From: Porpolomopsis calyptriformis
Lineage: Eukaryota; Basidiomycota; Agaricomycetes; Agaricales; Hygrophoraceae
NCBI GenBank assembly: GCA_951640195.1
Contig: OX621167.1
Span: 1,116,001-1,180,000, forward strand
Reading direction: 5' to 3'
DNA: 64,000 bases
Shown: in pieces, positions 29,262-58,133 of the stretch
Layout of the letters: each line of letters starts with the position of its first letter
Position numbering within the stretch: position 1 is the first letter of the stretch
Notes under the pieces: generated by a model
Databases searched by the model: none
Told to the model about the DNA's origin: nothing
The model's input: only the letters and a program-made list of their open reading frames with translations
Translations under genes and position numbers: made by a program

Positions 29262-29990
29262 ATGCCCGCCACTCGATCTCCCTCTCCTCAAGTCGCCATC
29301 AGACGCGCTGGACGAATCCCTTCGTCTGCCGCCATCCGTTCTCCTACCCCCGGTCCCTCCACCTCTTCCTCCTCCACTCGACAAATACGTCGACAAGCTT
29401 GCGCATGAGCAGAGGACTTCTACACCATCAAAACCCCTCCTCCCGAGGACCCTGCCGTCACCATTTCACGTCTCACGGTTCACAGCAATAGTGTTAGTAA
29501 CTGGAACCGAGAACTTCGACAGGAACGTGATGTCTTGAAAGCCGAGCTCAAAGCATCGGAGAAGAGCGCCTTGTACTGGAAGAACCGCTGGGACGAAAGC
29601 GAGCTCAAAGTTTGGGAGCTCCAACGACAGAAGAAGCGAACATGGGTCGACTGCTATGACGTCACCACCCGTGCCATCATCGTCAAGCTCGTGGAGGAAA
29701 GTCGTCGAGCTGAACGACTCTCCCGAGAAGATTTCCTCCGTGCCCAACAAGACCTTGCGACGACGGAGACCATAATCGATTACGGTTTGTCAGTCGAGTA
29801 CCCCATCAACCTCGACTTGGAATATCCGGAGGACGACGACGTCAAGACAATCCGAGCCCCTTCCCCCGTCGAAGCGGCTCCGGAAGCAATCCCCACCGCT
29901 TCCCTCTCAGTGGTCATCGAGGCCCCCACTGATGAGGAAATCCAGACTCAGGGCCCAGAGGACGAAACGACCGACACCACCCAGATTTGA
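29262..29990 (+). pseudogene. ORF3 of element A, extra coiled-coil protein (one nonsense codon)
   Basis: It lies between the chromodomain and the 3' LTR, in the pol frame. It starts MPATRSPSPQVAIRRAGR (basic, Ser/Pro-rich), is interrupted by TGA at 29406-29408 (CGA in the ancestral pattern) and continues VTISRLTVHSNSVSNWNREL into a long charged heptad-like segment (LKAELKASEKSALYWKNRWD, LVEESRRAERLSREDF). It ends with an acidic tail (INLDLEYPEDDDV). No signal peptide or membrane span, so it is not an envelope protein. Homologous ORFs occur in elements E and I and a similar one in B. Function unknown. Confidence 0.8.
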
Positions 29991-30007
29991 AATTCGGGTC
30001 GAATTTC
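29989..30007 (+). promoter_or_regulatory. Pre-LTR hairpin, element A
   Basis: GAAATTCG-GGT-CGAATTTC: an 8-bp perfect stem with triloop, starting at the ORF3 stop codon and ending 17 nt before the 3' LTR. The spacer is the presumed polypurine tract. Confidence 0.8.
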
Positions 30008-30024
30008 CCGAAAAACGAGGTGTA

Positions 30025-30457
30025 TGTCACAGACGTAAATTTTCATTTCCTCTCTATGTTAGTCATCGCTACTTAGTCGGACAGATCTTATCTCTGCTTG
30101 GGATTCCCCAGGGATTCCCCACCGTTCCTTATCTTTTCATTTACCCGAGATAGGACCTACTTCATTTCCGACCATTATGTTTCATCTCTTCACATGCTCC
30201 GAGTCGCTTATCATGCTTATCTTTACTCGTCGCATGTACTCCTCATGTACTCCTCATGTACTCCTCATGTATTCCTCGTGTTCATACTGACTCATCCGCA
30301 GTAGCATAGTCAGTATATAAACTCCTAGTTAGCCGTACTCAGACCTTAAGTCTGATTCCTCGTTAGCCACCCAATAACTAGGACTCGAGACATTATCATT
30401 GTCTTGGGACAGAGCTCTCCGAAGTAAAACCATCTCATCGACAACCAGTTTATAACA
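30025..30457 (+). repeat. 3' LTR of element A
   Basis: 433 bp, nearly identical to the 5' LTR. It carries the same four-unit 11-bp array (30233-30276). Differences noted are single-base transitions. Confidence 0.95.
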
Positions 30458-31712
30458 GGGATGTTCTCCTTGTCAGACTCATTGATGTCAGTATCGGTGA
30501 GCCATTGGATGCACCCGCCACCATCAGGATACCATTCCTCATGCTTGCGTTTCATTCGGACCATCTGACGAGAAGTGGATGTGACGGGGGGGGCGAAGTA
30601 CTTGGGTGGATGTATGGACATCTGCAGCATCTCCAACTTGAGCTCTGCTCGATCATGGGCACTTTCTGCTGCATGATAACAGGTCTGGAGGGAGCTGAGC
30701 TGAGTTCGGAGGGACTTGACGGTCCCCTGCGCATCTCGGAGCTGCTGGGAGAGCAAGAGGAAACCAGTGTTCTGGAAAGACCGGTCAGTGCGCTGCTCAT
30801 CATGAGCTTGCTGGACAGAGGGGTCCAGTGTCTGCGAGAGCTTTTGGAGGACTTCAACCCCAGGCCCAGGATGGTGGGTGATTCGAGAACGGGGAGCGTA
30901 TGGGTGAGTGATCCACGCAACCACGAGCTTCAGATCCGGCACAAGGTCCTCATCCTCATTACTACTCAGCCCCCCAGGCTCATTTTGATCCTCTCCATCT
31001 CCGTCTCCGTCTCCATCTCCATCTAATTCGGAATCATTAACTTGACAGGTTCCAGCACGTTCAGTAATGAGCGATTCAATCTCATGCGCTTTCTTGATAT
31101 TGGGGGGACAGATACCCGTGCCAGTTGGCTTGGGTGTCCTAACAAGCTGATTGGAATGGTCATGTTAGTAGATTGAATAATACATGGAGGGTAGACATAC
31201 CTGTTTAAACTTTGTCCCGATGGACTTAAGTGATTGCTCTGGGTGTCGATGCTTGGCTGCCCATTTCAAGAAGTTGCAATGGATGACACGCTATCTGTGG
31301 CCACCCAGCGGAAGTTCAGCTTCGACAAACTTGAGAAGGGCCTTGACATCACCCTCAGAATAGTTTCCGGTGCCGGAGGGGCAGCCGCGCTTCGATGGCA
31401 GCTCCGGTAAGTCGTCTTCAAGGTTGTCGGACTCCTCGGAGGCTTTGCGTTTGCGCAGTGGGTCACAGATTTTGACTTTCCAGGATTTCGTGGGTGCAGT
31501 GACATTCGTGGCTTGACTGAGAGGGAGGGGGGCAACAGACAGGGGTGGGAAGTGAAATGGATCAACAGGCTAAGAGAGATTAGTGAATGTCAGAAGATAT
31601 GTTTGATCATATACCGGTAAAATGAGCCCTTGTGAATTGGCATGAAAAACTGGCGCGGGTGCATTGGTATGATACACCCAGGTTTGGCCATTCATGTCTG
31701 TTGGGTAGGCTC

Positions 31713-32077
31713 TGTTATAAACCGGTTGTTCGGAATGCGTTTTACTTCAGGTGTTCTGTCCCAAGAGATATAGGGTATGGTTCCAAGTCCTTGTTATGAG
31801 TAGCTAACGAGGAATCAGACTTAAGGTCTGATACGTACAAGAAGTACTCTTTATATACTGACTACTTATCTGTGCGAGTCAGTGCGACATAACATGAGGT
31901 AGAGATAAGAATGAGTCATCGTGATTGATGACGAATCATAAGGGGTTGAAACGTAACGGAAATGAAGGTATCTGCATATAGGTAGAGTAATGGGGATTCC
32001 CTGGGGATTCCCAAGATAAGATACAAGTTTGCATATTGATAAGATAAAGGAAAGAAAAGAAAATTACAACCGTGACA
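31713..32077 (-). repeat. 3' LTR of element E
   Basis: 365 bp. On the minus strand it begins TGTCACGGTTG and ends TTTATAACA. It holds the AAGTCTGATTC/TATATAA pair as in element A. Several transitions and a 35-bp shorter central part distinguish it from the 5' LTR. Confidence 0.9.
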
Positions 32078-32095
32078 TACACCTTGGCTTCAAAG

Positions 32096-32114
32096 GAAAT
32101 TCATCCTGAATTTC
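32096..32114 (-). promoter_or_regulatory. Pre-LTR hairpin, element E
   Basis: On the minus strand GAAATTCA-GGA-TGAATTTC, an 8-bp perfect stem, 18 nt from the 3' LTR. Relative to element A the loop-closing pair is A-T instead of G-C, a paired change. Confidence 0.8.
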
Positions 32115-32438
32115 AAACTTGGGTGGTGTCGGTCGTTTCGTCTTCTGAGGCCTGAGTCGGGATTTCCTCGGTGGCGGGGGCCTCAATGGCCACTGAGGGG
32201 GAAGCAATGAGTTCAACCTCCGAAGTTGCTTCGATGGGGGAGGGGGCTCAGACTGTCGCGACGTCGTCATTGTCATCGGGATACTCCAAGTCAAGATTGA
32301 TTGGGTATTCGACCGATGCTCCGTACTTGATCAACGTTTCCATTGTCGCGAGGTCCCATTGTGCCTGAAGGAAGTCTTCTCTGGTGAGTCGTTCGCTTTG
32401 ACAACTCTCTTCTACGAGCTTGGCGATGATGGCGCAGG
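32115..32438 (-). pseudogene. ORF3 of element E, C-terminal part
   Basis: Reads CAIIAKLVEESCQSERLTRE, then DLATMETLIKYGASVEYPIN and acidic LDLEYPDDNDDV, with an in-frame TGA before APSPIEA. The N-terminal part continues on the far side of element B, at 39125-39410. Confidence 0.75.
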
Positions 32439-32807
32439 TGTTATGATTCGGTAGTCGAAGGGTTTTACTTCTCGCGTTGGAGGGGCTGATGAGGGAAATG
32501 GAATTCGACTAAAGAGTGGGGGAGCTAACTAGGAATCGAACTTAACCTACTGACTAGAAATCAGGCTTTATATACTAACTACCTGAGTCGCCATGAGTCA
32601 GTCGTATGTACGATTACAAAGCGGAATCCGGAATGTGACTAGTGAAGAGTCACGAAAAGAATAGCGGAAACGGAATGTGACTCGTGAAGAGTCGGAATGA
32701 AGGTACATGTGATCAGTCTCTATGTATAGAATGGTAAAACGGAAGGATAGACGGAATAGAGACTAATCAGGTATGACTAAGAGAAAAAGAAAAAGACGTC
32801 CGTGACA
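32439..32807 (-). repeat. 3' LTR of element B
   Basis: 369 bp. On the plus strand it runs TGTTATGATTCGG to GACGTCCGTGACA. Differences from the 5' LTR are confined to CpG sites (C or G against T or A). Confidence 0.95.
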
Positions 32808-32824
32808 TACACCCACACTAAAAG

Positions 32825-32843
32825 GAATTTCGTCCCGAAATTC
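32825..32843 (-). promoter_or_regulatory. Pre-LTR hairpin, element B
   Basis: GAATTTCG-GGA-CGAAATTC on the minus strand, an 8-bp perfect stem, 17 nt from the LTR. The stem differs from element A by compensated changes. Confidence 0.8.
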
Positions 32844-32887
32844 GAGGCGGCTTCGAGAGTGCTGAAGGGTGTGGAGGAGGGGAAGGA

Positions 32888-33478
32888 CTAGGTTGAGTCC
32901 TTGTTGGAGGCGATGGTCGACAGGGAAATAATGTCGACCGGGGAAATGTCGTCGTCATCGGGGATGGTGATGGGGTTCGACGACGAACCGGGGGGAACGA
33001 TAAGCGGACCCGGGAAAACAGGGGGAACTGGAGAATCAAGATGGGGAAGTACCTTTGTGACTTCCTCGTACTTTGCCTCCCAGTGTTTGGCCTGCTCTCG
33101 CCAGTACTCGCTCGCTCTTCTCTTTCCGTCCAAACTCATTCCTTGGTTGTACAACTCTTCGTTCAGTCTCGCGATCTCGTTCTTGTAGTAATCGATATCC
33201 CTCTGTAGTGACTCGATGATCTGCTCGGGCGGGATGGGTGGAGCGACGATTTCTTCTGGCCATATGGCAAGGTCCCGATTTCGTGCGCGACGGTTGTGCT
33301 GCCAGAGTTGTCCGGCGAGTTGTCCGGCGAGCTCGGCTTCACCGTAAGCGGAGGAGGTGGAAGCGAGCGGAGGGGGAGCGCGACGAGGGGGTTGCCCTCC
33401 AGTAGACATGCGAGGAGCGCGGGGTGGACGACCACCAGTAGACTTGCGGGCAGTTTGGTGTGAGCGTTCGGCGGGCAT
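32888..33478 (-). CDS. ORF3 of element B, 196-aa coiled-coil protein of unknown function
   Basis: Starts MPAERSHQTARKSTGGRPPR, a strongly basic Pro/Arg/Gly-rich N-terminus. A predicted coiled coil follows (IIESLQRDIDYYKNEIARLN, RASEYWREQAKHWEAKYEEV), then a Pro-rich, acidic tail (SNPITIPDDDDISPVDII). The layout (basic head, coiled coil with Trp-rich heptads, acidic tail) parallels ORF3 of A, E and I, though sequence identity is low. It starts about 120 nt after the pol stop, so a separate mRNA or re-initiation would be needed. No membrane span. Homology to A ORF3 is inferred from position and architecture. Confidence 0.75.
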   Translation of the reverse strand: MPAERSHQTARKSTGGRPPRAPRMSTGGQPPRRAPPPLASTSSAYGEAELAGQLAGQLWQHNRRARNRDLAIWPEEIVAPPIPPEQIIESLQRDIDYYKNEIARLNEELYNQGMSLDGKRRASEYWREQAKHWEAKYEEVTKVLPHLDSPVPPVFPGPLIVPPGSSSNPITIPDDDDISPVDIISLSTIASNKDST

Positions 33479-33598
33479 AGCGAGATCGATTTCTTGAGAA
33501 AGATGGAAACGAAAGAGATTATAAGGAAGAGTCGGAGTTTGGAAAAGGTGACAAAAGTGAAAATATAAACGAGGGGAGTTGATACCGTGAAAGAGTGA

Positions 33599-36500
33599 TT
33601 AGGTCGCCGTTTGAATTGATTGTTCGTAATCCAGAATTCGTTCTTTCGCATGGAGGAGGTTCTTCTTCGGTTCCCAGGTTGCTTCCTCAATGGGATAGCC
33701 GACCCATTTGACCAAATACGTACGACGTCGGGTGGACCCGTGATGTTGGAGAATTTGTTCAACCTCATATTCTTCTTTTTCCTGAATGATATCCGGAGGT
33801 GGACGGAGATTATCGTCTACTTCCTCTGGGTGGAGATCGGAGTTAATATTAGCGGGTCTCAGGAGAGAAACGTGAAAGACGTCGTGTATCTTCCATGATA
33901 AGGGGAGGGCCAGGCGATAAGAGACTTTTCCGATTTTTTCTAGAATTTTGAACGGTCCAGTGCGTCGGACATCAAGTTTGAGGGTTGGACGACCTGTTTT
34001 TAAGTTACGAGTATCAAGATAAACAAATTGACCTATTTGGAGTTGGGTATCTTTCCGTTTACGATCTGCGAAGCGTTTCATGGTTTCGGCCGCTGCTTCT
34101 AGAGCTTTTGTGGCTTCTTCACGGGCTTCTGCGAGATGATCGTGGAAGGCATTTGCTGCGGGGTTGGGAGTAGGGGTCGCAGGGATAGATGGGACGAAGG
34201 GATGTTGACCAGTATCAAGATAAAAGGGAGTGTGTTTCGTCGAGGAGTGCTGTCGGTTGTTATAAGCGAATTCAGCTGGGGACAGCCAGTTGGACCAATC
34301 GTCTTGCATAAAGTTTGTATATAAACGAAGGTATTGTTCAAGTTCCTGATTGGTGCGTTCCGTTTGACCATCGGTTTGGGGATGATAAGCGGTGGATAGA
34401 CCGGAGATGATTCCCAAATGAGTGTTGAGAGCTTTCGCAAATTTGGAAGCAAACTGAGTTCCTCGATCGGTTATGATCTTCTTTGGCCAGCCGTGGTGTT
34501 TCCATATATTGTCCCTGAAGAGTTTTGCGACTCCTTCTGCAGAAATATTTGATGTCGTCGGAATAAAGTGAGCGCGTTTGGTAAAACGGTCGACAACGAC
34601 TAAGACAGCATCGTAGCCAGATGATTGGGGGAGTTCCACGATTAGATCGGCGGTGATTTCTTCCCAAGGTCGAGACGAAGGGGGAATGGGTTCTAGGAGA
34701 CCTGCAGGCTTCGAAGGATAGAGCTTGACTTGTTGGCAGGTCGGACAGGATGACACGAATACACGGATGTCAGGGGCAGCACTACTCCAGGTGTAGTTCC
34801 GCAACACAAGCTCACGTGTCTTCTCGATTCCGGGATGGCCTCCATGGGGTAGGGAGTGGGTCAATCGAATTATTTCTGTGCGTAGCAATACGTCTGCTGG
34901 CACAACAATACGATCTCCTGCATCTCTCACAATTCCGTCAGTGAAGGAGTAGCCGGAAGAGGAATCGGATAACTTGATGCGAATGTCCTCTGGGATTTCG
35001 TTGAAGTCGGGGAAGCGAAGTCTTGACATAAAGGAAGGTTCGGACATGGAAATGATAGCATTGATGAAACGTTCGGGGGGGAGGAGGGCTTGGCCTTCTG
35101 ATTCTTCTTTTTCTGTGTGACGGTGGTCGGGTCGGCGGGAGAGTCCATCGGCTTTGTTTTTGATTCCAGGGGAATATTCGATCTTGAAGTCGAATCTACC
35201 TAAGAATTCCATCCAACGTGCTTGTCGTCTGGAGAGGGATCTGTTCTGCATAAAATACTTGAGCGCCAAATTGTCCGTTTTTATCAACACAGTATCCCTT
35301 GCGCCCTCTAAAAGATAGCGCCAATACTTGAGGGAAGTGACGATCGCAAGCATTTCCAGATCATGGGTAGGATAGTTGTATTCAGCAGGGAGTAGAGACT
35401 TTGAGAAAAAGCCAACGGGGTGCCAACCGTTGTCGTGTTTCTGAGATAAGACCGCGCCAATTCCGAAATCTGAGGCATCGGTCTCCAAGAGGTAAGGAAG
35501 GTCTGGCCGTGGGGTAAGAAGGACAGGGGCTGTAGTGACGAGATGTTTGAGTTGCTCAAAGGCTTTTTGACACAAAGGAGACCAATCCCAAGGTTGGTCC
35601 TTCCGCAAAAGGCCACAGAGGGGACGAACGACTGAGGAGAAACTTTTGATGTAACGACGCCAGAAGTTGGTGGTGCCAAGGAAGGATTGGAGGTCTCGCA
35701 GTTTTTGGGGCGTCGGCCAATTGATGATGGCGTCTACCTTTTTTGGATTGATAGCGAGTTGACCTTTACTGATGATTGTACCAAGGTATGTAACAGAGGT
35801 CTTCTCCATTTGGCATTTGACGGGTTTGGCGGATAGCTGATTCTTCTCCATGAGTTTAAGGGTTTCGTCAGTCCAGTGGCGAATTTCTTCGGGGGTGTCG
35901 CCCATAATGAGAATGTCGTCAATATAAATGTGGACACAGCCAGAGTCCAGAACGGTTTTAAAGAGAACGTCTATCATTCGTTGGAAAGATGCTGGGGAGT
36001 TCCGTAGTCCAAAGAACATAACGGTCGGCTCGAAGAGTCCTCGATTGGTGATGAAAGCTGCTTTCCATTCGTCACCTTCCTTGAGTCGTATGTTGTTAAA
36101 TCCCCATCGAATATCGATGACCGTAAAGAGTGAAGCGGTAGCAAGCTTCGGTACTTGGAGGATTTCCGATAGAAGGGGAAGGGGGTAACGATCAGGAATG
36201 GTTTTTGAATTGATGTAGCGATAGTCCTGGATAGGACGTAGACCAGCACTGAGACCTTTAGCATTGATCTCTTCAGCTTTTTTCGCAAAAAAGAAAGGAG
36301 CAGCTTGTGGTGATTTCGATGGACGTATCCGACCTGTTCTGAGATTTTCGTCAATAAACTTATTAAGTTCCACCTGTTCATAGGGGGAAAGGGGATAGAG
36401 TTTTCCGACTTGAAATTTGGTGTTCGGGTAGAGGTTGATCGCATGATCGAAGGAACGTCGAGGAGGAAGTTTGTCGAATTCTGCGGTATGGAAAACACGC

Positions 36501-37168
36501 CAGAAAATGTGATAACGACTGGGAATGAAGGATTTGATATCCTCCTCGATGGAAACTGGTCGGGAGTGGTCAACTCCGACCAAACGGATAAAGGAGTCAT
36601 GTTTCAGACTCGAATCGAAGACGTAGAGTTCTTCCTGTGGGGGCAACACTCCGACTCGCATACTACTGAACAGCGTGTCACCAGATGCAAATGTTAAGGT
36701 GCCTTTTGTCCAATTGATGGTGGGGTTGTGTCGCAAGAGCCATGGGAAGCCGAGGATGACCTGTTGCTTTCTTCCTAAGTTGGTGACCTCCAACCGGATT
36801 CGTTCTCGAAAAGATAGATCTGGTGCCTCAATAAACAGGTCTGTATCGTGCGTGATGGGACCTCCTCGGTTCTCGGAGCCATCAGCGTTTCGTACCGGTA
36901 CAACCTCATCCAACGGATAGGTCGATATCTCCATTTGACGAACGAATGCTTCGTCAATAAAATTCCCTGAGGCGCCAGAGTCAATGAGCGCTATGATAGC
37001 CACTCGTCGAAGATTGTCGGCACTCATGATCCAAAGATAGAATTCGAGAGCGCCTTTGCCCTGTTCAAGTGTGCCAAGAAAACGAAAACTTTTCATAGAT
37101 GATGGTACACATACATGGGACACAGCCAAAGTGCTCGGGCTTCTAGCACTTGGCCGGACTAAAAATCC
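33599..37168 (-). CDS. pol of element B (protease-RT-RNase H-integrase-chromodomain), intact
   Basis: An uninterrupted frame of about 1,190 codons entered by a -1 shift at 37162-37168. Domains: aspartic protease (IALIDSGASGNFIDEAFV), RT (FTVIDIRWGFNNIRLKEGDE, HIYIDDILIMGD), RNase H (LLETDASDFGIGAVLSQ, YNYPTHDLEMLAI), an integrase zinc finger (HGGHPGIEKTRELVL to SCPTCQQVK), an integrase core with Asp-Asp-Glu blocks (VVVDRFTKRAHFIPT, IITDRGTQFASKF, GQTERTNQELEQYL) and a chromodomain (EEYEVEQILQHHGS, TYLVKWVGYPIEEATWEPKK). It copies RNA to cDNA and integrates it; chromodomains direct insertion toward particular chromatin. All catalytic signatures seen are intact. Confidence 0.93.
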   Translation of the reverse strand, partial: GFLVRPSARSPSTLAVSHVCVPSSMKSFRFLGTLEQGKGALEFYLWIMSADNLRRVAIIALIDSGASGNFIDEAFVRQMEISTYPLDEVVPVRNADGSENRGGPITHDTDLFIEAPDLSFRERIRLEVTNLGRKQQVILGFPWLLRHNPTINWTKGTLTFASGDTLFSSMRVGVLPPQEELYVFDSSLKHDSFIRLVGVDHSRPVSIEEDIKSFIPSRYHIFWRVFHTAEFDKLPPRRSFDHAINLYPNTKFQVGKLYPLSPYEQVELNKFIDENLRTGRIRPSKSPQAAPFFFAKKAEEINAKGLSAGLRPIQDYRYINSKTIPDRYPLPLLSEILQVPKLATASLFTVIDIRWGFNNIRLKEGDEWKAAFITNRGLFEPTVMFFGLRNSPASFQRMIDVLFKTVLDSGCVHIYIDDILIMGDTPEEIRHWTDETLKLMEKNQLSAKPVKCQMEKTSVTYLGTIISKGQLAINPKKVDAIINWPTPQKLRDLQSFLGTTNFWRRYIKSFSSVVRPLCGLLRKDQPWDWSPLCQKAFEQLKHLVTTAPVLLTPRPDLPYLLETDASDFGIGAVLSQKHDNGWHPVGFFSKSLLPAEYNYPTHDLEMLAIVTSLKYWRYLLEGARDTVLIKTDNLALKYFMQNRSLSRRQARWMEFLGRFDFKIEYSPGIKNKADGLSRRPDHRHTEKEESEGQALLPPERFINAIISMSEPSFMSRLRFPDFNEIPEDIRIKLSDSSSGYSFTDGIVRDAGDRIVVPADVLLRTEIIRLTHSLPHGGHPGIEKTRELVLRNYTWSSAAPDIRVFVSSCPTCQQVKLYPSKPAGLLEPIPPSSRPWEEITADLIVELPQSSGYDAVLVVVDRFTKRAHFIPTTSNISAEGVAKLFRDNIWKHHGWPKKIITDRGTQFASKFAKALNTHLGIISGLSTAYHPQTDGQTERTNQELEQYLRLYTNFMQDDWSNWLSPAEFAYNNRQHSSTKHTPFYLDTGQHPFVPSIPATPTPNPAANAFHDHLAEAREEATKALEAAAETMKRFADRKRKDTQLQIGQFVYLDTRNLKTGRPTLKLDVRRTGPFKILEKIGKVSYRLALPLSWKIHDVFHVSLLRPANINSDLHPEEVDDNLRPPPDIIQEKEEYEVEQILQHHGSTRRRTYLVKWVGYPIEEATWEPKKNLLHAKERILDYEQSIQTAT

Positions 37169-38580
37169 TTTTGCTCTTTTAACGCTCGAGCTAGCGCAGC
37201 CCGTCTCTCCTTGTTCCAATTTGCGATTCCCATATCCTTCAAGTCGTCCTTTGCCATCCTTTTTTCCTTTTCGTCGTCCTCTGGTACTTCCTCTATCCGC
37301 GCCTCCGATTCTTCTGTATCGACCCGATTGATCGTTCGGACATTCCGTCCTTTGCCTCGACCGCGATTTCCTCCTCTTCCTCGAGTAGAGTTTGAGGACT
37401 CTTGACGTGCCGGAACGTCTTCAGCGCGTGGGCTTCGACATTCGTTGGCGTAGTGTCCCTTTTTGCCACAATTGTAGCAAGTGATGGAGGAGTTGTCTCG
37501 TTTCGCTGTCTTGAGAGAGGCTTCTCTCGATTCTTGTTTGATCGGGGATGAAGTGGTGGTGGTAGTGATGGAGCGGGAAGGGTTTCCTCGTGGACTTGAT
37601 TTGGCTTCAGACTTCTTTCCTTTTTGATCTCGACTTGACCACAATGCTTGTTCGGCTCGTTGTTCCTGGTACTGTTCTTCGAACTGGGCCGCTTTTGTTG
37701 TCCAGTCCAGCAAAGTCGACGGCATATTGTCCATCGAATAGATCCGCGTTCGGATCGGCTGGGGGAGTCCGGCTTTGTAAAACCGAAGTAGAGCGGTCTC
37801 GTTGTACTCAGTTCTTGCTGCGTGTTGCATGAACCGAAGGTTGTAGTCTTCTATCGTTCCTGTCATCTTCACTTTTTCTAGCTCGATCCGCGCCTTCGCC
37901 GCTGGGTTGATCCTTCCGAAAGCTTCCCTGAAATCGTCCAAAAATGTCGCGTAGTCCCATACGAAATTCGTCGTCCTGTCAACTCCTTCTGTGAACAGTC
38001 GTCCCCAAGCCCGTGGATTGCCGTCACCGAGATAAGAGAGCATATAGATGATCTTCTGCTTGTCGTTGTAGTCCTTGACCACAAAGTTGAGTCGACATTG
38101 GTGAATGAAGTCTTCAAGCTTCTCGGAGGTTCCATCGTACTCGGTTGGATCGGCGATTTTGATTTTGGTGGGGGCTGGGAGTATGGGGGGAGCAGTTGTC
38201 TGGGTGGGTAGTTGAGTGGGAAAGGCTGGTTGGGATGGTTGGACGGATTGGGTTCTTCTTGTGGGGTAAACGAAAGGATTCGAGGGGGAAAGTCCAGGTC
38301 CTCGAAGTACAGATCGTCGTCGTGGGGGAGGGGTGGCTGGTTCAGATTCTTCGCGTCGGCTTTCTTTGAGAGCTTTTAGTTCCTTTCGGAGCTCATCATT
38401 GACGTCGACTTCGTTGTAGTACCAACCGCGGAACTGGTCGATTTGTGCTCTTAAGTCTCTGAGCTCTTGTTCCATGTTGAATGGGACGACGTCTTCTTCT
38501 TCTTCTTGAATGGTGGCGGGGATGTTACTGGGTCCTGGTGCGGGAACGGATTGATCGGCTTCATATTCTTGTTGTGACAT
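37159..38580 (-). CDS. gag of element B, 473 aa
   Basis: Starts MSQQEYEADQSVPAPGPSNI. A coiled-coil (LRDLRAQIDQFRGWYYNEVD) is followed by a capsid-like core (KIADPTEYDGTSEKLEDFIH to LLDWTTKAAQFEEQYQEQRA) and one CCHC knuckle (CYNCGKKGHYANEC). The tail is rich in Arg-Gly (NSTRGRGGNRGRGKGRN) and ends KEQKDF with TAG at 37159-37161. Forms the particle and binds the genomic RNA. The stop directly follows the slippery heptamer. Confidence 0.92.
   Translation of the reverse strand: MSQQEYEADQSVPAPGPSNIPATIQEEEEDVVPFNMEQELRDLRAQIDQFRGWYYNEVDVNDELRKELKALKESRREESEPATPPPRRRSVLRGPGLSPSNPFVYPTRRTQSVQPSQPAFPTQLPTQTTAPPILPAPTKIKIADPTEYDGTSEKLEDFIHQCRLNFVVKDYNDKQKIIYMLSYLGDGNPRAWGRLFTEGVDRTTNFVWDYATFLDDFREAFGRINPAAKARIELEKVKMTGTIEDYNLRFMQHAARTEYNETALLRFYKAGLPQPIRTRIYSMDNMPSTLLDWTTKAAQFEEQYQEQRAEQALWSSRDQKGKKSEAKSSPRGNPSRSITTTTTSSPIKQESREASLKTAKRDNSSITCYNCGKKGHYANECRSPRAEDVPARQESSNSTRGRGGNRGRGKGRNVRTINRVDTEESEARIEEVPEDDEKEKRMAKDDLKDMGIANWNKERRAALARALKEQKDF
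37162..37168 (-). promoter_or_regulatory. Putative -1 ribosomal frameshift site (element B)
   Basis: Gag frame AAG-GAT-TTT-TAG: heptamer GGATTTT directly before the stop. A -1 slip gives GGA-TTT-TTA-GTC, the pol frame. It resembles the GGATTTA type used in some retroviral pro-pol junctions. Confidence 0.6.
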
Positions 38581-38743
38581 TGATGTCAGTGATGATGATG
38601 AGGGGGAAAGGGGGATGATGGATTGTGCGGGAGTTTGGAATACTATTGGTTGAAAGGGAGTATCTGAATCTGCAGATGAGAAGATTGACCTTGTTAAGTC
38701 TTCGGCAGGATCCAGAGTGGAAGTGGTTTGATGCGCAAGAAGG

Positions 38744-38891
38744 AAGTTCGATTCTTGTTATGATTCGGTAGTCGAAGGGTTTTACTTCTCGCGTTGGAGG
38801 GGCTGATGAGGGAAATGGAATTCGACTAAAGAGTGGGGGAGCTAACTAGGAATCGAACTTAACCTACTGACTAGAAATCAGGCTTTATATA
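38744..38891 (-). promoter_or_regulatory. Element B promoter and self-priming site
   Basis: On the minus strand TATATAA (38891-38885) precedes AAGTTCGATTC (38860-38850) by 31 nt. The complement GAATCGAACTT (38754-38744) starts one base after the 5' LTR. The 11-nt match differs from element A at two positions, and both partners changed together. Confidence 0.75.
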
Positions 38892-39124
38892 CTAACTACC
38901 TGAGTCGCCATGAGTCAGTCGTATGTACGATTACAAAGTGGAATCCGGAATGTGACTAGTGAAGAGTCACGAAAAGAATAGCGGAAACGGAATGTGACTC
39001 ATGAAGAGTCGGAATGAAGGTACATGTGATCAGTCTCTATGTATAGAATGGTAAAACGGAAGGATAGACGGAATAGAGACTAATCAGGTATGACTAAGAG
39101 AAAAAGAAAAAGACGTCCGTGACA
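38756..39124 (-). repeat. 5' LTR of element B
   Basis: 369 bp, nearly identical to the 3' LTR at 32439-32807. Contains the TATA box and self-primer listed separately. Confidence 0.95.
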
Positions 39125-44590: not shown

Positions 44591-44942
44591 TGTTAGGTGC
44601 AAAGCAGGACTCAGGTCTTCACTCTGGGAGGTCCAATGTGGGTCTTAGCCAATGCAAACAAGGAAGTTGGCAAGTCCAAGTTGTGGTTCAACCTAGAGAA
44701 GTACAAGCAATTCCGAGCTGCCTATATTTACCCTAGCTGAGTCCGAAAATGTGATTATGTAATCAATCCATGGAACGATTGTGTAAGCAATGATTAAGTG
44801 TAAAAGATAAGATAAGAAAGATAAGAAGGAGTGACAAACGTCACACTTGTGACAGCATGACAATCACAGCATCAAAAATGATAGTAAAGAGAACTGGCAC
44901 ACAGAAAGGAAATAATAACCAAAAAAGAGACTCATCGTAATA
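44591..44942 (-). repeat. 3' LTR of element F
   Basis: 352 bp. On the plus strand it runs TGTTAGGTGCAAAGC to CTCATCGTAATA (terminal CA mutated to TA). It lacks a 39-bp segment found in the 5' LTR. Confidence 0.92.
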
Positions 44943-44958
44943 CCACCCTCTCATTAGA

Positions 44959-44974
44959 ATCGCGTCCACGCGAT
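44959..44974 (-). promoter_or_regulatory. Pre-LTR hairpin, element F
   Basis: ATCGCG-TGGA-CGCGAT on the minus strand, a 6-bp perfect stem, 16 nt from the 3' LTR. The stem is unrelated to that of element A but the loop still ends GGA. Confidence 0.7.
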
Positions 44975-50264: not shown

Positions 50265-50670
50265 ATTCTACGTCATCCAAGAGACCGTATCTAACCCTCG
50301 AGCTTGTTCCTGGTGGTGTCATTGCAGATTGTCTTGGATGTGGACTTCCCTGATAAGGTCAGTACCACATCAGCAAAAGATGCAGATTAATGAAGCAAGG
50401 AAGTGGGTGACTGGTTTGGGAGTATGTAGTGGCACGTGTGGGGATTGATCTAGAGCACTTCAGACACTAGCAAATCTGGATACAAGATCAACAGTTCAGC
50501 AGTGGAAGGCTGTGTGGAAGAAGGGGGGGCAGATAGGGATAGGGGTGTAAGGTGGGGCAGGATCAGTGGAGTAGTCCAGAGTAGTGGTCAACTTGAAACC
50601 AGTGGAAACGTCCGTTAGGGTCTTCCAAGTAGTTCCAAATGAAAGAGGATAGGACGTCCAAGGTTGTCTT

Positions 50671-50874
50671 TGTTAAGAATTGCACTGGGAACGTGCGCCT
50701 CTTGATGACAGTCAAGACCACTTGACTAAAACGTCATAGTATTGGACTTACCCAATACTGTTGTTCCCAGTATATATACCAGATTACACGTGATTGGCTT
50801 TGAATCTGCTCGACGTGCATGGGAGACGGCCTCAGCGCGCTCGATCTCATGTCTCGAATTTCAGATTCCTGACA
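50671..50874 (-). repeat. 3' LTR of element G
   Basis: 204 bp, TGTTAAGAATTGCAC to AGATTCCTGACA on the plus strand. No differences from the second copy were seen. Confidence 0.93.
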
Positions 50875-50891
50875 TTCACCTCCACTTTATG

Positions 50892-50910
50892 AATGTCCGT
50901 CCCGGACATT
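50892..50910 (-). promoter_or_regulatory. Pre-LTR hairpin, element G
   Basis: AATGTCCG-GGA-CGGACATT on the minus strand, an 8-bp perfect stem, 17 nt from the LTR. Four of eight stem pairs differ from element A, all compensated. Confidence 0.8.
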
Positions 50911-51495
50911 ACCAGGTACGGCCAACCCAATAGTGCACAGAGTCAAACTCCTTGGTACACATAAGACGCCTATCAGAGGCTGAGGAAACAGCAATACTGG
51001 TGGTCCAGCGGTCTACTGCCATCTCGGCATGATACTTTGGGTGAAACCCATCAGCCTTCACATAATCCTTGATTCGGGTGAGGTCCATCTCGGACAGCCT
51101 TGCTCCGTATAGAGACTAGCTATCTAGGGCCAAGCCCAGCTACTGCATTCATAGCGGACTCCGCTCAACCCATAAGTGGAGTAGCTGATCCTTTTACGTC
51201 GGCGCCACCGACGGTCCACAACATCCTATCTTTTAAACTCCGGGATGATGGCGATCAAACACGCCTTGGCTTATTTATACTCGAGGTCCTCGAGTCGGAG
51301 TTGCAGTAATCAGAGGGACCATGCTCAACAGAGTTAGGGAGACCTTCAATACTCAGACACGTCTCGTTAGAGGTCAGGTAAGCTCTGACCAATCGCCTAT
51401 GTCCTTTTGTAACGCAACCACGTGCGCATATCAGAATTCTTTTATAGGGACTTTAATTCTGGTATGTGAAGGATTCGAACTCTCGACCGCATGTG

Positions 51496-51615
51496 AAGTC
51501 CAATACTTGTTAAGAATTGCACTGGGAACGTGCGCCTCTTGATGACAGTCAAGACCACTTGACTAAAACGTCATAGTATTGGACTTACCCAATACTGTTG
51601 TTCCCAGTATATATA
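51496..51615 (-). promoter_or_regulatory. Element G promoter and self-priming site
   Basis: On the minus strand TATATATA (51615-51608) precedes AAGTCCAATACT (51586-51575). Its exact complement AGTATTGGACTT (51507-51496) directly abuts the 5' LTR. 12-nt match. Confidence 0.7.
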
Positions 51616-51711
51616 CCAGATTACACGTGATTGGCTTTGAATCTGCTCGACGTGCATGGGAGACGGCCTCAGCGCGCTCGATCTCATGTCTCGAATTTCA
51701 GATTCCTGACA
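51508..51711 (-). repeat. 5' LTR of element G
   Basis: 204 bp, identical to the copy at 50671-50874 by eye, so insertion is recent. Confidence 0.93.
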
Positions 51712-51800
51712 GTCTTCAACTAGTGAATAGTCGTGGAAGATGATAAGGAGCAGTTCCAAGGAAGTGCTGGAAGAAGTGAGGTTGAAGAGGTGAGTTAAGG

Positions 51801-51917
51801 AGGTTGAACCAGCTGTTAGGTGCGAAGCAGGACTCAGGTCTTCACTCTGGGAGGTCCAATGTGGGTCTTAGCCGATGCAAACAAGGAAGTTGGCAAGTCC
51901 AAGTTGTGGTTCAACCT
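51801..51917 (-). promoter_or_regulatory. Element F self-priming site
   Basis: AGGTTGAACCA on the minus strand at 51917-51907, about 30-38 nt after a TAAATATA box, is exactly complementary to TGGTTCAACCT at 51811-51801, two bases after the LTR. 11-nt match with sequence unrelated to elements A and B. Confidence 0.7.
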
Positions 51918-52473: not shown

Positions 52474-52679
52474 TTCTTCAAGAGCAGAAGAAAAGGATGG
52501 TTCTTGATCTTGAATTGTAGCTGAAAAGGTTGATCTCGAAAGAGGGTCTTCGTATTGTTCTTCAACGTCTGAGTTGTCAGTAGAAGCCAGGATGGAAATG
52601 GGTAGAAGTCAAAAGGGTGATGTCGATGATCACAGTGACGAAGAGTGTTTGGATAAGCGAGTGGGAGAGAACCAGAAGG

Positions 52680-52801
52680 AAGTCTGATTCTTGTTATAAA
52701 CCGGTTGTTTGGAACGCATTTTACTTCGGGTGTTCTGTCCCAAGAGATATAGGGTATGGTTCCAAGTCCTTGTTATGAGTAGCTAACGAGGAATCAGACT
52801 T
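52680..52801 (-). promoter_or_regulatory. Element E self-priming site
   Basis: AAGTCTGATTC on the minus strand inside the LTR (52801-52791), downstream of TATATAA. Its complement lies at 52690-52680, one base after the 5' LTR. Same 11-mer as element A. Confidence 0.75.
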
Positions 52802-53091
52802 AAGGTCTGATACGTACAAGAAGTACTCTTTATATACTGACTACTTATCTGTGTGAGTCAGTGCAACATAACATGAGGTAGAGATAAGAATGAGTCATCA
52901 TGATCGATGATGAATCATAAGGGGTTGAAATGTAATGGAAATGAAGGTATCTGCATATGGGTAGAGTAATGGGGAATCCCGAAGAAAGGCAATGGGGAAT
53001 CCCAACGAAAGAATGTGGGGATTCCCAAGATAAGATACAAGTTTGCATATTGATAAGATAAAGGAAAGAAAAGAAAATTACGACTGTGACA
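52692..53091 (-). repeat. 5' LTR of element E
   Basis: 400 bp. Compared with the 3' LTR it has an extra 35 bp within a repeated GGGGAATCCC/GGGGATTCCC stretch (52970-53030) and about a dozen transitions, mainly C/T. Confidence 0.88.
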
Positions 53092-53281
53092 CTGGCCCAC
53101 CACAAGATTTCAGATGAGCACAAAAACAAGAAGAAAAATCAGTGAGGCCTCACTGATAAGCTTTGAGGCGGGAGCAGCCAATCCCAACAGATTGGCGTGG
53201 AAGGATCATTCATACATCCCCCTATGAATGGCAGGGACAACGAGCAAAGGTGAGGGGGTCAGCACAGTTACAGTTCACCAG
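53092..53281. other. 190-bp spacer between elements E and H
   Basis: No gene or repeat recognised. It may be the last piece of the pre-insertion locus. It does not begin with the flank expected from the left side of element E. Confidence 0.4.
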
Positions 53282-53640
53282 TGTTAGACAGCAGTCTAGG
53301 GTTGATCGCAAGGTTTTACTTCAGGCTCTGGATGTAGGGTTTTAAAGGGTTGGAAGACTACTGATTGGGGTGTTAACGAAAGAAACAGACTTATCCTAAG
53401 TCTATCTACTGCTAGCTTTATATACTAGCTAAGTATGAGTCATACTGACTACGTGTGAGTCATAACGACTATGGATGAGTCATGTAGATAAGGAAAGTGA
53501 TGGTAGACTAAATATAGATATGGCTTGGTCACCTTCTATTACTAAGCGGAGCTTGGGTGGCTAAGCGGCTATTGATGTAAACTGTCTGATATAAATGGGA
53601 ATAGACGAGCAAAGGAAAAAGAAAAAATATATCTCTGACA
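53282..53640 (-). repeat. 3' LTR of element H
   Basis: 359 bp. On the plus strand it runs TGTTAGACAGCAGTC to ATATCTCTGACA. On the minus strand TATATAA is followed by a predicted start AAGTCTGTTTC. The 5' LTR and primer site are outside the window. The left boundary is inferred from TGTTA alone. Confidence 0.75.
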
Positions 53641-53658
53641 TTCACCTCCACAAAAGGG

Positions 53659-53675
53659 AAATTCGTCCCGAATTT
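53659..53675 (-). promoter_or_regulatory. Pre-LTR hairpin, element H
   Basis: AAATTCG-GGA-CGAATTT on the minus strand, a 7-bp perfect stem, 18 nt from the LTR. Confidence 0.78.
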
Positions 53676-53813
53676 TGAGAAGACCCTTCGAAGCGAAGGA
53701 AGGGTGTCAAGGGGAGGTGTAAAGGGATGGTAGAGGTGGGCAGAGGAGTGATGAGATGGGTGAGTGATGAAGAGGAGGGATGAGTGGATAGTTGTCAGAT
53801 CAAAGACTATCCA

Positions 53814-54618
53814 CTAGGTATACTTTTCCTCAACTCTCCAGTAGATATCACCTTCTCTAACCACACATCCAGAAGGGAGGCATAAGGAATACTGTTCGTT
53901 TGGGAACAACATCCGGTCCCTAGGTTGCGCCATCATAAACTGGGGGTTGAAGCAGGTGTCCATCTGGGTCAAACCAGTGGTAACAGCCATCCAACTCCTG
54001 GGCACGTCGCAACCAAGTTTCAGCCAGCTCCCTACACATCACAGCATTTTCCTCTAGGTCAAGGATCCTTTTGTACTTGGCATCCATCATTGAGCAGTAC
54101 CCGTTCTAGGCAGTATAGAGTCGGTCGGCAACGCGATGGATGCAGTGCGAGATGGGGTCTTCGGGGATAGTGGGGGTGGTGATGTCGGATTCATCCTGGT
54201 CCGGTATAACCATCAAAAGTTGGCGCCCAACTTGGTATGCCTCCAGCCAATCTTCGAGTTGATTCTTCTTGTCGTCAAAGTCGCTGTCCTTGTCGAACAT
54301 GTACCAGTGACGGTCGTAGTTAAGTTCGCATCGACATGCTCCAGAGATAAAAGGGATGTAGGTTTCAGGGCACCCAGATAGGTGCTCGACCTTGGCAAAG
54401 GGGAGCCCTTGGTAGTTACGATTTCGTCCTGGCTTGTCAATAGTATCGGTACATCATTTCGGCTTCTTGAACCGTCGGGTAACCAAGACACTGTCGGATG
54501 AGGAAGAGGAGGAAGAAGAATTGGGGGGGAGGTTGGAGGTAGAAGCGGTGGGGTTCCCTCAGGGTGGACGCCTCCCAGTGAACTTGCAGGTGTAAAGAAC
54601 TTGGCAGGGCATTTCGTG
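53814..54618 (-). pseudogene. Possible ORF3 remnant of element H
   Basis: Between chromodomain and LTR a broken reading gives SSSSSSSSDSVLVTRRFKKP, DFDDKKNQLEDWLEAYQVGR and MDAKYKRILDLEENAVMCRE with AETWLRRAQELDGCYHWFD. This is a charged, helical protein in the same place as ORF3 of other elements but without clear sequence match. Several stops. Confidence 0.5.
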
Positions 54619-54726
54619 CTTCTTTTGATGATTGTCGGGAAGGGGAAGTCCTTATAGTCGTTGGAGATTCAAAAGGAGAAAAAGAGATTTAACGATCGTG
54701 ATGTCGGTAGTATTTGTGAAAGAGAG

Positions 54727-57696
54727 TTAAGTCGCTGCTTGAATAGACTTTTCATAATTCATCAAGACGTCTTTTGCATGCTTGAGGTTCCATCGTGGTT
54801 CCCAGGTAGCTGCCTCTATTGGGTAGCCTTTCCACTTGATTAGATATTGTCGATTTCGTTTTCCTGGGGTGTGATTTAAGATACATTCCACTTCATACTC
54901 AGGCTCTCCTTCGATCACATCCGGAGGTGGTCAGAGATTATCGTCTTCTCCGATTGGGGGGTGGAGATCAAGATTCTCCTCTAGAGCCTTGAGTAGCGAA
55001 ATGTGAAACACAGGGTGGATCCTCCACGACAGCGGTAGCTTTAGTCGGTAAGCCACAGGTGATACTTGTTTTAGAATTATAAAAGGTCCGAGCCGGCGGA
55101 CATCCAGTTTCTTCACGGGCCAGCCAGTTTTCAAATTCTTGGCATCAAGCCAGACCCTTTGTCCTTCGTAAAACGTGGGTTCCTTTTGACGTTTTCGATT
55201 GGCATAGAGCTTCATTGAGTTAGCGGTCTTTTGAAGAGACTCTTCAGCGTTCTCTCTAGCTCTAGTAAGCTGCACGTAAAACTCGTTGGCATCGGGATTT
55301 GAGGTTTGGGTTGGAACTGATAAGGGGGTGTGAGGATGTCAACCATATTCAAGCCAGAAGGGGGATTGGTGAGTGGAGGAATGTTCTCGGTTGTTATAAG
55401 CAAACTCCGCTGGGGCTAACCAGTCTTTCCAATCGTCTTGCATGAAGTTAGTGTAGAGCCATACGTACTGCTCTAACTCTTGATTGGTTCGTTCGGTTTG
55501 TCCATCTGTTTGGGGGTGATAGGCGGTAGAAAGCCCAGAAGTGGTTCCTAGGAGTTCATTCAATGACATAGCAAACTTCAATGAGAATTGGGTTCCTCGA
55601 TCAGTAATGATCTTCTCTGGCCATCCTTTAGCAGACAGGTTTCCAGTTGTTAGGATGAAGTGAGCCTGTTTGGTGAATCTGTCTACCACAACTAGAATGG
55701 CATTGAATCCTTTTGAGTTAGGGAGTTCCACGATAAGATCAGCAGTGATCTGTTGCCATGGTTTAGTAGGAGGGGGTAATGGTTGGAGAAGTCCAGTGGG
55801 TTTCTGTGGATAAACCTTGGTCTATTGACAAGCAAGGCAGGACTTCACGTAATTGGTGATATCTTGTGGGGCACCTTCCCATGTGTAATTATGGAGGAGC
55901 AGTTCCTTCGTCGTCTCAATGCCGGGATAGCCACTAGTGGGTGTGTTGTGGGTCAATCGAATAATTTCTGTGCGCAAAGATACATCCTTTGGCACAACTA
56001 TACAATCTCCAGCATCGCGCACAATGCCATCTACGTGGGTGTATCCGGAAGAGGGATCTTCAATTTTGGCCATGATCTCAGGGGGTAGGGGGGAATGGAA
56101 GCAAAGCTTGGATAAAAAGTTGGGGGATGATAAACTGATGATTGCATTGATGAAAAGTGCATTGACAAAAAGTTCTTTTGGCAGAAGGACCTTGTCCTCC
56201 ACCTCCTCATAAGACTCTGGGTAATGATCTGGACGTTTGGAGAGTCCATCAGCCTTATTCTTGATTCTAGGCTGGTAGCTGATTCTGAACCAGAAGCGAG
56301 CTAAAAACTCAGACCATCTAGCCTGGCATCTGGAGAGCTGATGACTGGTCATGAAGTATTGGAGGGACCGGTTGTCAGTCTTGATCATAATGGGTTGCCG
56401 TGTCCCTTGCAGGAGGTATCTCCATTCATTCAAGGCAGATATGATGGCTAAAAGCTCTTGGTCATGGGTGGGGTAATTTTGTTCAGCTGGGAGGAGGGTT
56501 TTGGAGTAGAAGCCAATGGGGTGCCAATCTTCTTCATCATTCTCTTTCTGGGTCAAGACTGCACCTAGTGCAACACCAGAGGCATCTGTCTCCAGAAGGT
56601 AAGGAAGGTCTGGCTTCAGGGTTCTCAAAACAGGAGCAGAGGTAAGTGCATTCTTGAGGGTATCAAAAGCACGTTGTTGCCTAGGGGTCCAAATCCATTC
56701 TTGATCCTTTCATAGGAGCTCATTAAGAGGACAAGCAATCAGGGAGTAATCCTTGATAAACCTTCGCCAAAAGTTGGCAGTGCCAAGGAAGGATTGAAGG
56801 TCTCGTTTCTTCTGGGGGATAGGCCAGGTTCTGATCGCCTCAACCTTCTTGGGGTTAATAGCAATGTGGCCTTTAGAGATCATTATCCCCAGATAAATCA
56901 CTTCCTTTTTCTCAAACTGGCACTTGACAGGTTTGCAGGACAGTTGGTTCTTCTCCATGATCTCTAGAGTTCATTCTGTCTAATAGGTGAGTTCAGTAAG
57001 GTCCTTTCCCATGATCAAGATATCGTCAATATAGATGTGGACCTGTTTGGAATCGATAACCTCTTTGAAGAGAATGTCGATCATTCATTGAAAGGAGGCA
57101 GGTGAGTTTCGCATTCCAAAGAACATGACAGTGGGCTCGAACAGCCCTCGTCGAGTGTTGAAGGCTCCTTTCCATTCATCTCCTTCTTTGATACGAATAT
57201 TGTTAAAGCCCCATCGGATATCCATGACTGTGAACAGTTCCACTTCTGATAACTTGGTCTGTTGAATGATCTCAGAGATGAGAGGTAAGGGATAAGCGTC
57301 TGGGACTGTGTGAGCATTCAGATAGCGATAGTCTTGGATTGGACGCAGTCCAGCATCTTGTCCTTGGGCATTAACTTCTTCACCTTTGGGAGCAAAGAAG
57401 AACGAAGCAGCTTGTTTGGAATTTGATCGTCGTATTCGTCCACTTGCAAGTTGTTCTTCCAGGAATTCATTCAGCTTTCCCTGTTCGTACTCAGTGAGTT
57501 TGTACACCTTTCTGATCTTGGGTCTAAAGGTAGGTTCGAGATCGATCACATGGTCAAATTCTGGTCGTCGTGGGGGAAGTTCATCGAAGATAGTCTTCAT
57601 AAACACCTTCCAGTGCCTCCAGTATTTCTTTGGCACATACTTCTTCATATCTTCCTCCACAGTAGTGGGTCTTGCATGGTCTCCCAGTGAGACCAA
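54727..57696 (-). pseudogene. pol of element H, from RT to chromodomain, broken
   Basis: RT (MDIRWGFNNIRIKEGDEWKG, NSPASFQ), RNase H (LLETDASGVALGAVLTQK, NYPTHDQELLAII), integrase (VVVDRFTKQAHFILTTGN, STAYHPQTDGQTERTNQELE) and chromodomain (EPEYEVECILNHTPG, YLIKWKGYPIEAATWEPR). Interrupted by stops or frame changes around 57085, 56960, 56710, 55822, 55339 and 54925. Closest to element B in motif wording. Confidence 0.83.
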
Positions 57697-57697
57697 T

Positions 57698-58097
57698 TGT
57701 TATAAACTGGTTGTCGATGAGATGGTTTTACTTCAGAGAGCTCTGTCCCAAGACGATGATAATGTCTCAAGTCCTAGTTATTGGGTTGCTAACGAGGAAT
57801 CAGACTTAAAGTCTGAGTACGACTAACTAGGAGTTTATATACTGACTACGCTACTGCAGATGAGTCAGTGTAAACACGAGGAATACATGCGACGAGTAAA
57901 GATAAACATGATAAGGGACTCGGAGCATGTGAAGAGATGAAACATGATTGTTGGAAATGAAATGTGTCCTATCTCGGATACATGAAAAGATACGGAATTG
58001 TGGGGAATCCCTGGGGGATCCCAAGTAGAGATAAGACCTGTCCGACTAAGCAGCAATGACTAACATAGAGAGGAAATGAAAAATTACGTCCGTGACA
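57698..58097 (-). repeat. 3' LTR of element I
   Basis: 400 bp. It is 33 bp shorter than the LTRs of element A, exactly three 11-bp units: here only one CATGTATTCCT unit is present. AAGTCTGATTC and TATATAA are conserved. Confidence 0.88.
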
Positions 58098-58114
58098 TAC
58101 ACCTCGTTTTTTGG

Positions 58115-58133
58115 GAAATTCGACCCGAATTTC
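58115..58133 (-). promoter_or_regulatory. Pre-LTR hairpin, element I
   Basis: GAAATTCG-GGT-CGAATTTC on the minus strand, identical to element A, 17 nt from the LTR. Confidence 0.8.

What the first reader, a model, noticed from the sequence alone, without database searches (positions are those of the whole stretch)
29989..58133. Covarying hairpin with GGA/GGT loop at a fixed 16-18 nt from the 3' LTR in all seven LTR elements
Directly seen: just upstream of the presumed polypurine tract every element has a perfect inverted repeat around a GGA or GGT loop. A and I: GAAATTCG-GGT-CGAATTTC (29989-30007, 58115-58133). E: GAAATTCA-GGA-TGAATTTC (32096-32114). B: GAATTTCG-GGA-CGAAATTC (32825-32843). 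H: AAATTCG-GGA-CGAATTT (53659-53675). G: AATGTCCG-GGA-CGGACATT (50892-50910). F: ATCGCG-TGGA-CGCGAT (44959-44974). The distance to the LTR is 17, 17, 18, 17, 18, 17 and 16 nt. Stem sequence changes between lineages but pairing is kept, even in the non-coding G. I know of no described structure like this beside the plus-strand primer of gypsy elements. Possible roles (inference): placing RNase H for polypurine-tract cleavage, RNA packaging or dimerisation, or 3'-end formation.
Basis: seen in the sequence. Interest (0 to 1): 0.9.

Follow-up and report, generated by a model that had tools for sequence, protein, structure and literature searches.

The report
Covarying hairpin beside retrotransposon second-strand primer
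Fungal gypsy-type jumping genes carry a small hairpin at a nearly fixed distance before their right-hand repeat; between lineages its letters change while its pairing is mostly kept, so it probably helps the element make the RNA primer for its second DNA strand.

Summary
All seven inverted repeats are where stated; target-site duplications in A, B, F and G confirm the LTR starts, so 16-18 nt is right. In the same fungal genome, 59 of 60 further 3' ends chosen by their LTR start, not by the hairpin, carry it, many decayed. The shared core is stem-CG-(N)GG(A/T)-CG-stem. Sound covariation lies between lineages: in ten stems 52 of 60 outer pairs are kept, against 28.5 when arms are swapped; one A sub-lineage has an A-T to T-A swap in nearly unchanged flanks. 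The change in element E is ordinary CpG decay. A ~1-kb non-coding family also has the hairpin. C-terminal peptides of relatives elsewhere could encode such a hairpin (19 of 43; 7% of shuffles): inference only. Lineage M lacks it; N has it imperfect. The five elements tested look self-priming. Best reading: a cis signal for plus-strand priming, its base 13-14 nt from the purine-tract end, near the ~13 bp between Ty3 polymerase and RNase H sites. The mechanism is inferred; predicted RNA stability is modest, and in four of seven window contexts other folds win. Copia Sireviruses have a related but different inverted repeat.

The parts
29989..30007 (+). hairpin of element A, GAAATTCG-GGT-CGAATTTC
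   Evidence: 17 nt to LTR start
30008..30024 (+). A: 17-nt spacer with the purine tract (G run ends 13 nt after the stem)
23556..23988 (+). A: 5' LTR; a self-complementary 11-nt PBS starts at its 2nd following base
30025..30457 (+). A: 3' LTR; target duplication GGGAT
58115..58133 (-). hairpin of element I, same 19 letters as A
   Evidence: 17 nt to TGTCAC
58098..58114 (-). I: spacer with the purine tract
32096..32114 (-). hairpin of element E, GAAATTCA-GGA-TGAATTTC
   Evidence: 18 nt to LTR start at 32077
32078..32095 (-). E: spacer with the purine tract
32825..32843 (-). hairpin of element B, GAATTTCG-GGA-CGAAATTC
   Evidence: 17 nt to LTR start at 32807
32808..32824 (-). B: spacer with the purine tract
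32439..32807 (-). B: 3' LTR (5' LTR 38756-39124; target duplication CCTGC)
53659..53675 (-). hairpin of element H, AAATTCG-GGA-CGAATTT
   Evidence: 18 nt to TGTCAG; LTR pair not checked
53641..53658 (-). H: spacer with the purine tract
50892..50910 (-). hairpin of the short non-coding element G, AATGTCCG-GGA-CGGACATT
   Evidence: 17 nt to LTR start at 50874
50670..51711 (-). element G: LTRs 50670-50874 and 51507-51711, 632-nt interior, longest stop-free stretch 86 codons
44959..44974 (-). hairpin of element F, ATCGCG-TGGA-CGCGAT
   Evidence: 16 nt to LTR start at 44942
44943..44958 (-). F: spacer with the purine tract (G run ends 13 nt after the stem)

Best explanation
It is a cis-acting hairpin of chromodomain gypsy elements that helps to make the plus-strand primer. 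Shown here: a nearly fixed place just 5' of the polypurine tract; pairing mostly kept while the letters change between lineages; a conserved core CG-(N)GGW-CG. Inferred: during minus-strand synthesis the reverse transcriptase meets the base of the hairpin, alone or with a protein such as nucleocapsid on the GGW loop, and hesitates with its RNase H domain over the end of the purine tract 13-14 nt behind it. One precise cut there makes the 3' end of the primer and so fixes the U3 end of the new DNA; the base of the hairpin would also mark the 5' edge of the primer.
For: Stem-to-LTR spacing is 16-18 nt in A, B, E, F, G (LTR ends from pairs), H, I, J, K and the contig L095 (LTR start by similarity); 13-14 nt to the end of the G run. 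Ten stems keep 52 of 60 outer pairs against 28.5 with swapped arms (20,000 permutations). L047 and L092 show an A-T to T-A swap in near-identical flanks. The short non-coding G family has hairpin and spacing. The hairpin forms with probability >=0.7 in 10 of 13 contexts at 25 C if the template ends at the stem base, 6 of 13 with 40 nt more. Ty3 polymerase and RNase H sites lie ~13 bp apart (PMC5371799, section 4).
Against: No primer end, pause or cut was measured. The stem is weak (-4.4 to -11.5 kcal/mol at 25 C) and B, H and G stay under 0.5 even in the cut context; eight of ten fold z-scores are unremarkable. Lineage M lacks the short hairpin and N has mismatches. A bare roadblock would not need a conserved loop. 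Two distances (to the G run, to the LTR) could be matched to an enzyme size, so the fit to 13 bp is soft; the HIV-1 value of 17-18 bp (recalled) would fit the other.
Confidence: 0.5

Rival explanations
1. RNA packaging or dimerisation signal: Gag/NC zinc knuckles bind the GG(A/U) loop, or the near-palindromic 19-mer pairs between two genomic RNAs.
For: A zinc knuckle (PF00098) is found in 5 of 6 Gag frames scanned. GG-containing loops bind NC in retroviruses (recalled). A 19-mer duplex is strongly favourable on paper, -15.9 to -28.7 kcal/mol at 25 C. The non-coding G element, which must be packaged in trans, has the hairpin.
Against: It does not explain a nearly fixed distance to the purine tract. 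No knuckle was found in the F2 Gag frame. The loops are not self-complementary.
Confidence: 0.2
2. It acts as DNA: a hairpin in single-stranded minus-strand DNA next to the primer hybrid, or a palindromic binding site in double-stranded DNA.
For: Covariation supports pairing but not RNA over DNA. Predicted RNA folds are often different.
Against: The loop is GGA or GGT on the element's sense strand in all ten stems, while a double-stranded site could face either way (shared descent could also explain this). A double-stranded binding site should keep letters, not pairing. DNA folding was not computed.
Confidence: 0.13
3. The palindrome is kept by mutation, not by selection: template switching during reverse transcription corrects imperfect inverted repeats.
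For: A single correction event would also make the double change of L047/L092. Mismatched copies are common.
Against: It does not explain the place, spacing and common core. In A, B and E divergence other than C>T/G>A is lowest in the hairpin; not so in H/G.
Confidence: 0.08
4. A 3'-UTR or translation-end element (stop-codon context, RNA stability or 3'-end formation).
For: A TGA overlaps or lies just before the stem in A, I, E, F and F2; in F2 it ends a 429-aa frame.
Against: In B and in J (L011) a frame stays open through the hairpin; G has no long frame. The spacing is set to the LTR.
Confidence: 0.05

Closest known systems
[quoted passage not shown] discussed in PMC3601003, passages)
   Same: Precisely placed inverted repeat beside the PPT; its authors propose that it aids correct PPT primer formation.
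   Different: There the PPT lies in the loop and the right arm is inside the 3' LTR (arms about 19-28 bp). Here both arms lie upstream of the PPT with a 3-4 nt loop, in gypsy elements. In G alone the 3' arm can also pair with the LTR start.
T-box/U-box and the TCTT motif just upstream of the PPT in retroviruses, Ty1 and Tf1-like elements (PMC10085805, passages)
   Same: Conserved sequence just 5' of the PPT thought to define the plus-strand primer.
   Different: A short pyrimidine motif, not a hairpin; [quoted passage not shown]
Conserved Hairpin Site of fungal GalEa copia elements (PMC5445492, passages)
   Same: A conserved hairpin next to an LTR in fungal retrotransposons.
   Different: It follows the 5' LTR where a primer-binding site is missing; ours precedes the 3' LTR.
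Tf1/sushi self-priming elements (PMC10085805, passages; Tf1 itself recalled)
   Same: The host elements here have the 11-nt complement between the start of the interior and the LTR.
   Different: The self-priming structure is at the 5' end of the RNA; whether Tf1 has our hairpin was not tested.

Membership tests
Chromodomain Ty3/gypsy elements (host of the hairpin) | pol order RT - RNase H - integrase - chromodomain | tested here: met
   B pol: RVT_1, RT_RNaseH, H2C2, rve, SH3_Tf2-1, Chromo; the other elements were not scanned in full
Tf1/sushi self-priming group | sequence after the 5' LTR complementary to the start of the element's own RNA | tested here: met
   11-nt complements to the LTR at base 1-3 after the 5' LTR in A, B, E, F, G (5 of 5; no shuffle control; RNA starts not mapped)
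Sirevirus-type PPT inverted repeat | PPT lies in the loop, right arm inside the 3' LTR | tested here: not met
   both arms upstream of the PPT in all seven; a search for exact complements between the 45 nt upstream and 80 nt of LTR gave none of 6 nt or more in 5 of 7, though folding does pair G's 3' arm with the LTR start
PPT-defining cis structure (what it would work like) | fixed distance to the PPT/U3 junction | tested here: met
   16-18 nt to the LTR
PPT-defining cis structure (what it would work like) | base pairing conserved by compensatory change | tested here: met
   between lineages and L047/L092; not at the CpG pairs within families; M and N depart
PPT-defining cis structure (what it would work like) | a changed stem changes primer cutting or plus-strand start | not testable with these tools
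   needs an experiment
Fungal GalEa Conserved Hairpin Site | directly after the 5' LTR, no PBS | tested here: not met
   hairpin is before the 3' LTR; PBS-like complement present

The most novel reading that the evidence does not exclude
An old structural ruler shared by many chromoviruses: a CG-(N)GGW-CG hairpin whose base sets, through the size of the reverse transcriptase, where RNase H cuts the plus-strand primer. It would reach across basidiomycetes (peptide evidence) and, from memory only, into plants, where I recall a TTCGAGGACGAA motif before the PPT; the plant part was not tested here.
Probability: 0.3. Interest if true: 0.88.

Novelty: new variant of a known kind. Interest (0 to 1): 0.7.

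Why it matters
How reverse transcriptase picks one purine tract and cuts it at one place is not settled; a review (PMC3185511, abstract in the listing, passages) says that many details of PPT-primed initiation remain unknown. A hairpin 13-14 nt from the end of the tract, in several gypsy lineages and in a short non-coding element, is a concrete and easily tested candidate for a positioning signal. It would also help to mark the 3' ends of fungal gypsy elements.

Tried and rejected
Viral-contig pattern scans gave five loci; all look like chance matches with no retroelement context. Pol searches of viral contigs found no relative. The bacterial/archaeal genome scan gave two loci (L095, L096), low-coverage contigs with the same gypsy element of an unknown organism; its hairpin has one T-T mismatch and its LTR start was set by similarity. 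Wrong first LTR start, corrected. Shared peptide coding as the cause: rejected, the frames and peptides at the hairpin differ between lineages. Fold energy: no support by itself. Loop kissing with the 5' region was only considered, not computed. Rows that do not fit or were left out: L066 has no recognisable hairpin; of the 20 10-kb loci, L010 and L024 showed no readable 3' end; of nine F copies, five keep the stem, one is changed on both sides, three gave none in my scan; of 11 TTCGAGGACGAA places fetched, six are not LTR ends; of the 49 loci several F-type copies are decayed or unreadable, six (M) lack the short hairpin, two (N) are imperfect and L164 is a 5' end; N and M were not in the permutation test; 231 of 283 proteins had no L-x-G-G tail near the end and were left out, and that test shows only that a hairpin could be encoded. 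The G loci were fetched by their hairpin, so only their spacing is independent.

Full report
Setting. The window is C5:1116001-1180000 of an unnamed 33.5-Mb genome in 17 contigs. The named relatives of its elements in the protein searches that I noted are fungi (Candolleomyces, Sanghuangporus, Ganoderma, Phellinidium, Lyophyllum), basidiomycetes by my own knowledge. Element B's pol has RT, RNase H, integrase, SH3_Tf2-1 and chromodomain. In all five elements whose 5' LTR I read (A, B, E, F, G), 11 nt that begin 1-3 nt after that LTR are complementary to the LTR, the mark of self-priming (no shuffle control).

Observation. All seven inverted repeats are exactly where reported. LTR ends come from LTR pairs and from 5-bp target duplications in A, B, F and G. 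The spacing is 16-18 nt to the LTR and 13-14 nt to the end of the G run.

Genome-wide. The pattern GGTGWATGTCABRG (end of the purine tract plus LTR start), which does not contain the hairpin, hits 433 places against 4 for its reversal; the tool lists 100. I read 60 of these 100 as 200-base stretches; by eye 59 of the 60 have a recognisable hairpin, many decayed, L066 being the exception. With the window (7), loci found by the SH3 domain (16 ends) and loci found by the A-type hairpin itself (8), 91 ends (75 distinct) were scored: mean 14.3 against 5.9 for shuffles, and 56 of 75 reach 14 against 1.5% of shuffles. In 74 of 75 the best stem ends 13 or 14 nt before the TG (range searched 10-18); L064 is off register and L066's is not the same hairpin.

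Other lineages. Five of nine F copies keep ATCGCG-TGGA-CGCGAT; L103 is changed on both sides at CpGs; three gave none. F2 and F3 keep 5 bp, TCGCG/CGCGA. J has GAACTTCG-AGGA-CGAAGTTC and K AAGCTTCG-AGGA-CGAAGCTT, 17 and 18 nt before the LTR. A gypsy contig of unknown origin in two bacterial assemblies has GATCG-T-CT-GGA-AG-T-CGATC, 16 nt before its LTR. In J, K and that contig the LTR start was set by similarity. Against: lineage M (L157-L159, L161-L163) has no short hairpin, only a possible 7-bp stem with a 17-nt loop; N (L160, L165) has a 4-bp outer stem, two mismatches and a GGA loop.

Covariation. When 3' arms are swapped among ten stems (A, B, G, F, F2, F3, J, K, H, L095), outer pairs fall from 52 of 60 to 28.5 on average, at most 48 in 20,000 permutations. 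N and M were not in that test, the stems are not fully independent (F, F2 and F3 are close), and F2 and F3 have lost the sixth pair. The fifth pair from the loop shows all four Watson-Crick types. Within the A family, L047 and L092 have both arms changed, A-T to T-A, in near-identical flanks; L092 has an inner mismatch as well. Within families the CpG pairs decay without compensation. Leaving out C>T/G>A, divergence is lowest in the hairpin in A (0.009; upstream 0.023, spacer 0.064), B (0.004; 0.188, 0.016) and E (0.019; 0.045, 0.083), but not in H/G (0.037; 0.056, 0.023) (ungapped, so indels raise some values).

Context. In F2 a 429-aa frame ends at a TGA just before the stem. A TGA also overlaps or just precedes the stem in A, I, E and F, where I did not show that it ends a real gene. 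In J (L011) and B a frame stays open through the hairpin. G is a ~1-kb family without a long frame. Of ten loci fetched by its hairpin (one is the window's own copy), nine have 17-nt spacing and one 18; six show an LTR-start copy 787-927 nt upstream.

Other genomes, indirectly. I asked whether C-terminal peptides next to a purine-coding tail (L-x-G-G) could encode, with free codon choice, a hairpin with a GGA or GGT loop. Of 43 distinct tails 19 allow >=8 bp, against 6.9% of shuffled peptides and 1 of 43 control peptides from the same proteins; 20 of the 22 fits of >=7 bp end 1-5 nt before the end of the L codon. Two fitting proteins that I checked bear a name, both Sanghuangporus (P0043, P0144). 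This is inference, not DNA evidence.

Fold. The hairpin alone is worth -4.4 to -11.5 kcal/mol at 25 C. Its probability is >=0.7 in 6 of 13 contexts with 40 nt downstream and in 10 of 13 when the template ends at the stem base, as it would in front of an arriving reverse transcriptase; B, H and G stay below 0.5. In the fold of ten contexts, A, E, H and G prefer other structures; in G the 3' arm pairs with the LTR start.

Mechanism. A nearly fixed distance to the purine tract, presence in a non-coding element and a conserved GGW loop point to reverse transcription. Ty3 polymerase and RNase H sites are ~13 bp apart (PMC5371799, section 4), so an enzyme halted at the stem base would have RNase H near the end of the G run. 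This is the favoured, untested model. NC on the loop may be part of it or a rival: 5 of 6 Gag frames have a zinc knuckle.

Known or new. Ten paper searches showed no hairpin wholly upstream of the PPT in gypsy elements; most subscription papers are not in that library. Nearest are the Sirevirus inverted repeat (PMC2829016, passages), for whose kind PMC3601003 asks a systematic search (passages), and the TCTT/U-box (PMC10085805, passages). Passages on the PPT in PMC11381356, PMC3185511, PMC3362945 and PMC2864245 mention none. I call it a new variant of a known kind: PPT-flanking cis structures.

Noticed in passing
window 23989-24000, 38745-38755, 51496-51506, 51800-51813, 52681-52691: Interiors of A, B, G, F and E begin with an 11-nt complement to their own LTR, so these elements look self-priming (Tf1/sushi type), the short non-coding G included.
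   Followed up: partly
window 50670-51711; loci L166-L175: G is a ~1-kb non-coding LTR element (TRIM-like, my label) with PBS-like complement, hairpin, purine tract and LTRs; several copies in the genome.
   Followed up: partly
window 31814-31832 and 52793-52811: Perfect palindrome ATCAGAC-TTAAG-GTCTGAT inside LTRs; it covers the stretch complementary to the PBS, so it may mark the RNA start.
   Followed up: no
loci L034-L094: Element copies differ mostly by C>T/G>A at CpG in the hairpin, as after methylation decay or RIP-like mutation.
   Followed up: partly
L095 (Shewanella canadensis NODE_33), L096 (Neobacillus notoginsengisoli NODE_32): Two bacterial assemblies hold low-coverage contigs with nearly the same eukaryotic gypsy element, probably a shared contaminant.
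   Followed up: partly
window 32439-39124: Element B lies inside another gypsy element, probably E; target duplication CCTGC.
   Followed up: no
L157-L159, L161-L163: Lineage M has no short hairpin but a possible 7-bp stem (one G-T) with a 17-nt loop ending close to the purine tract (by eye).
   Followed up: no
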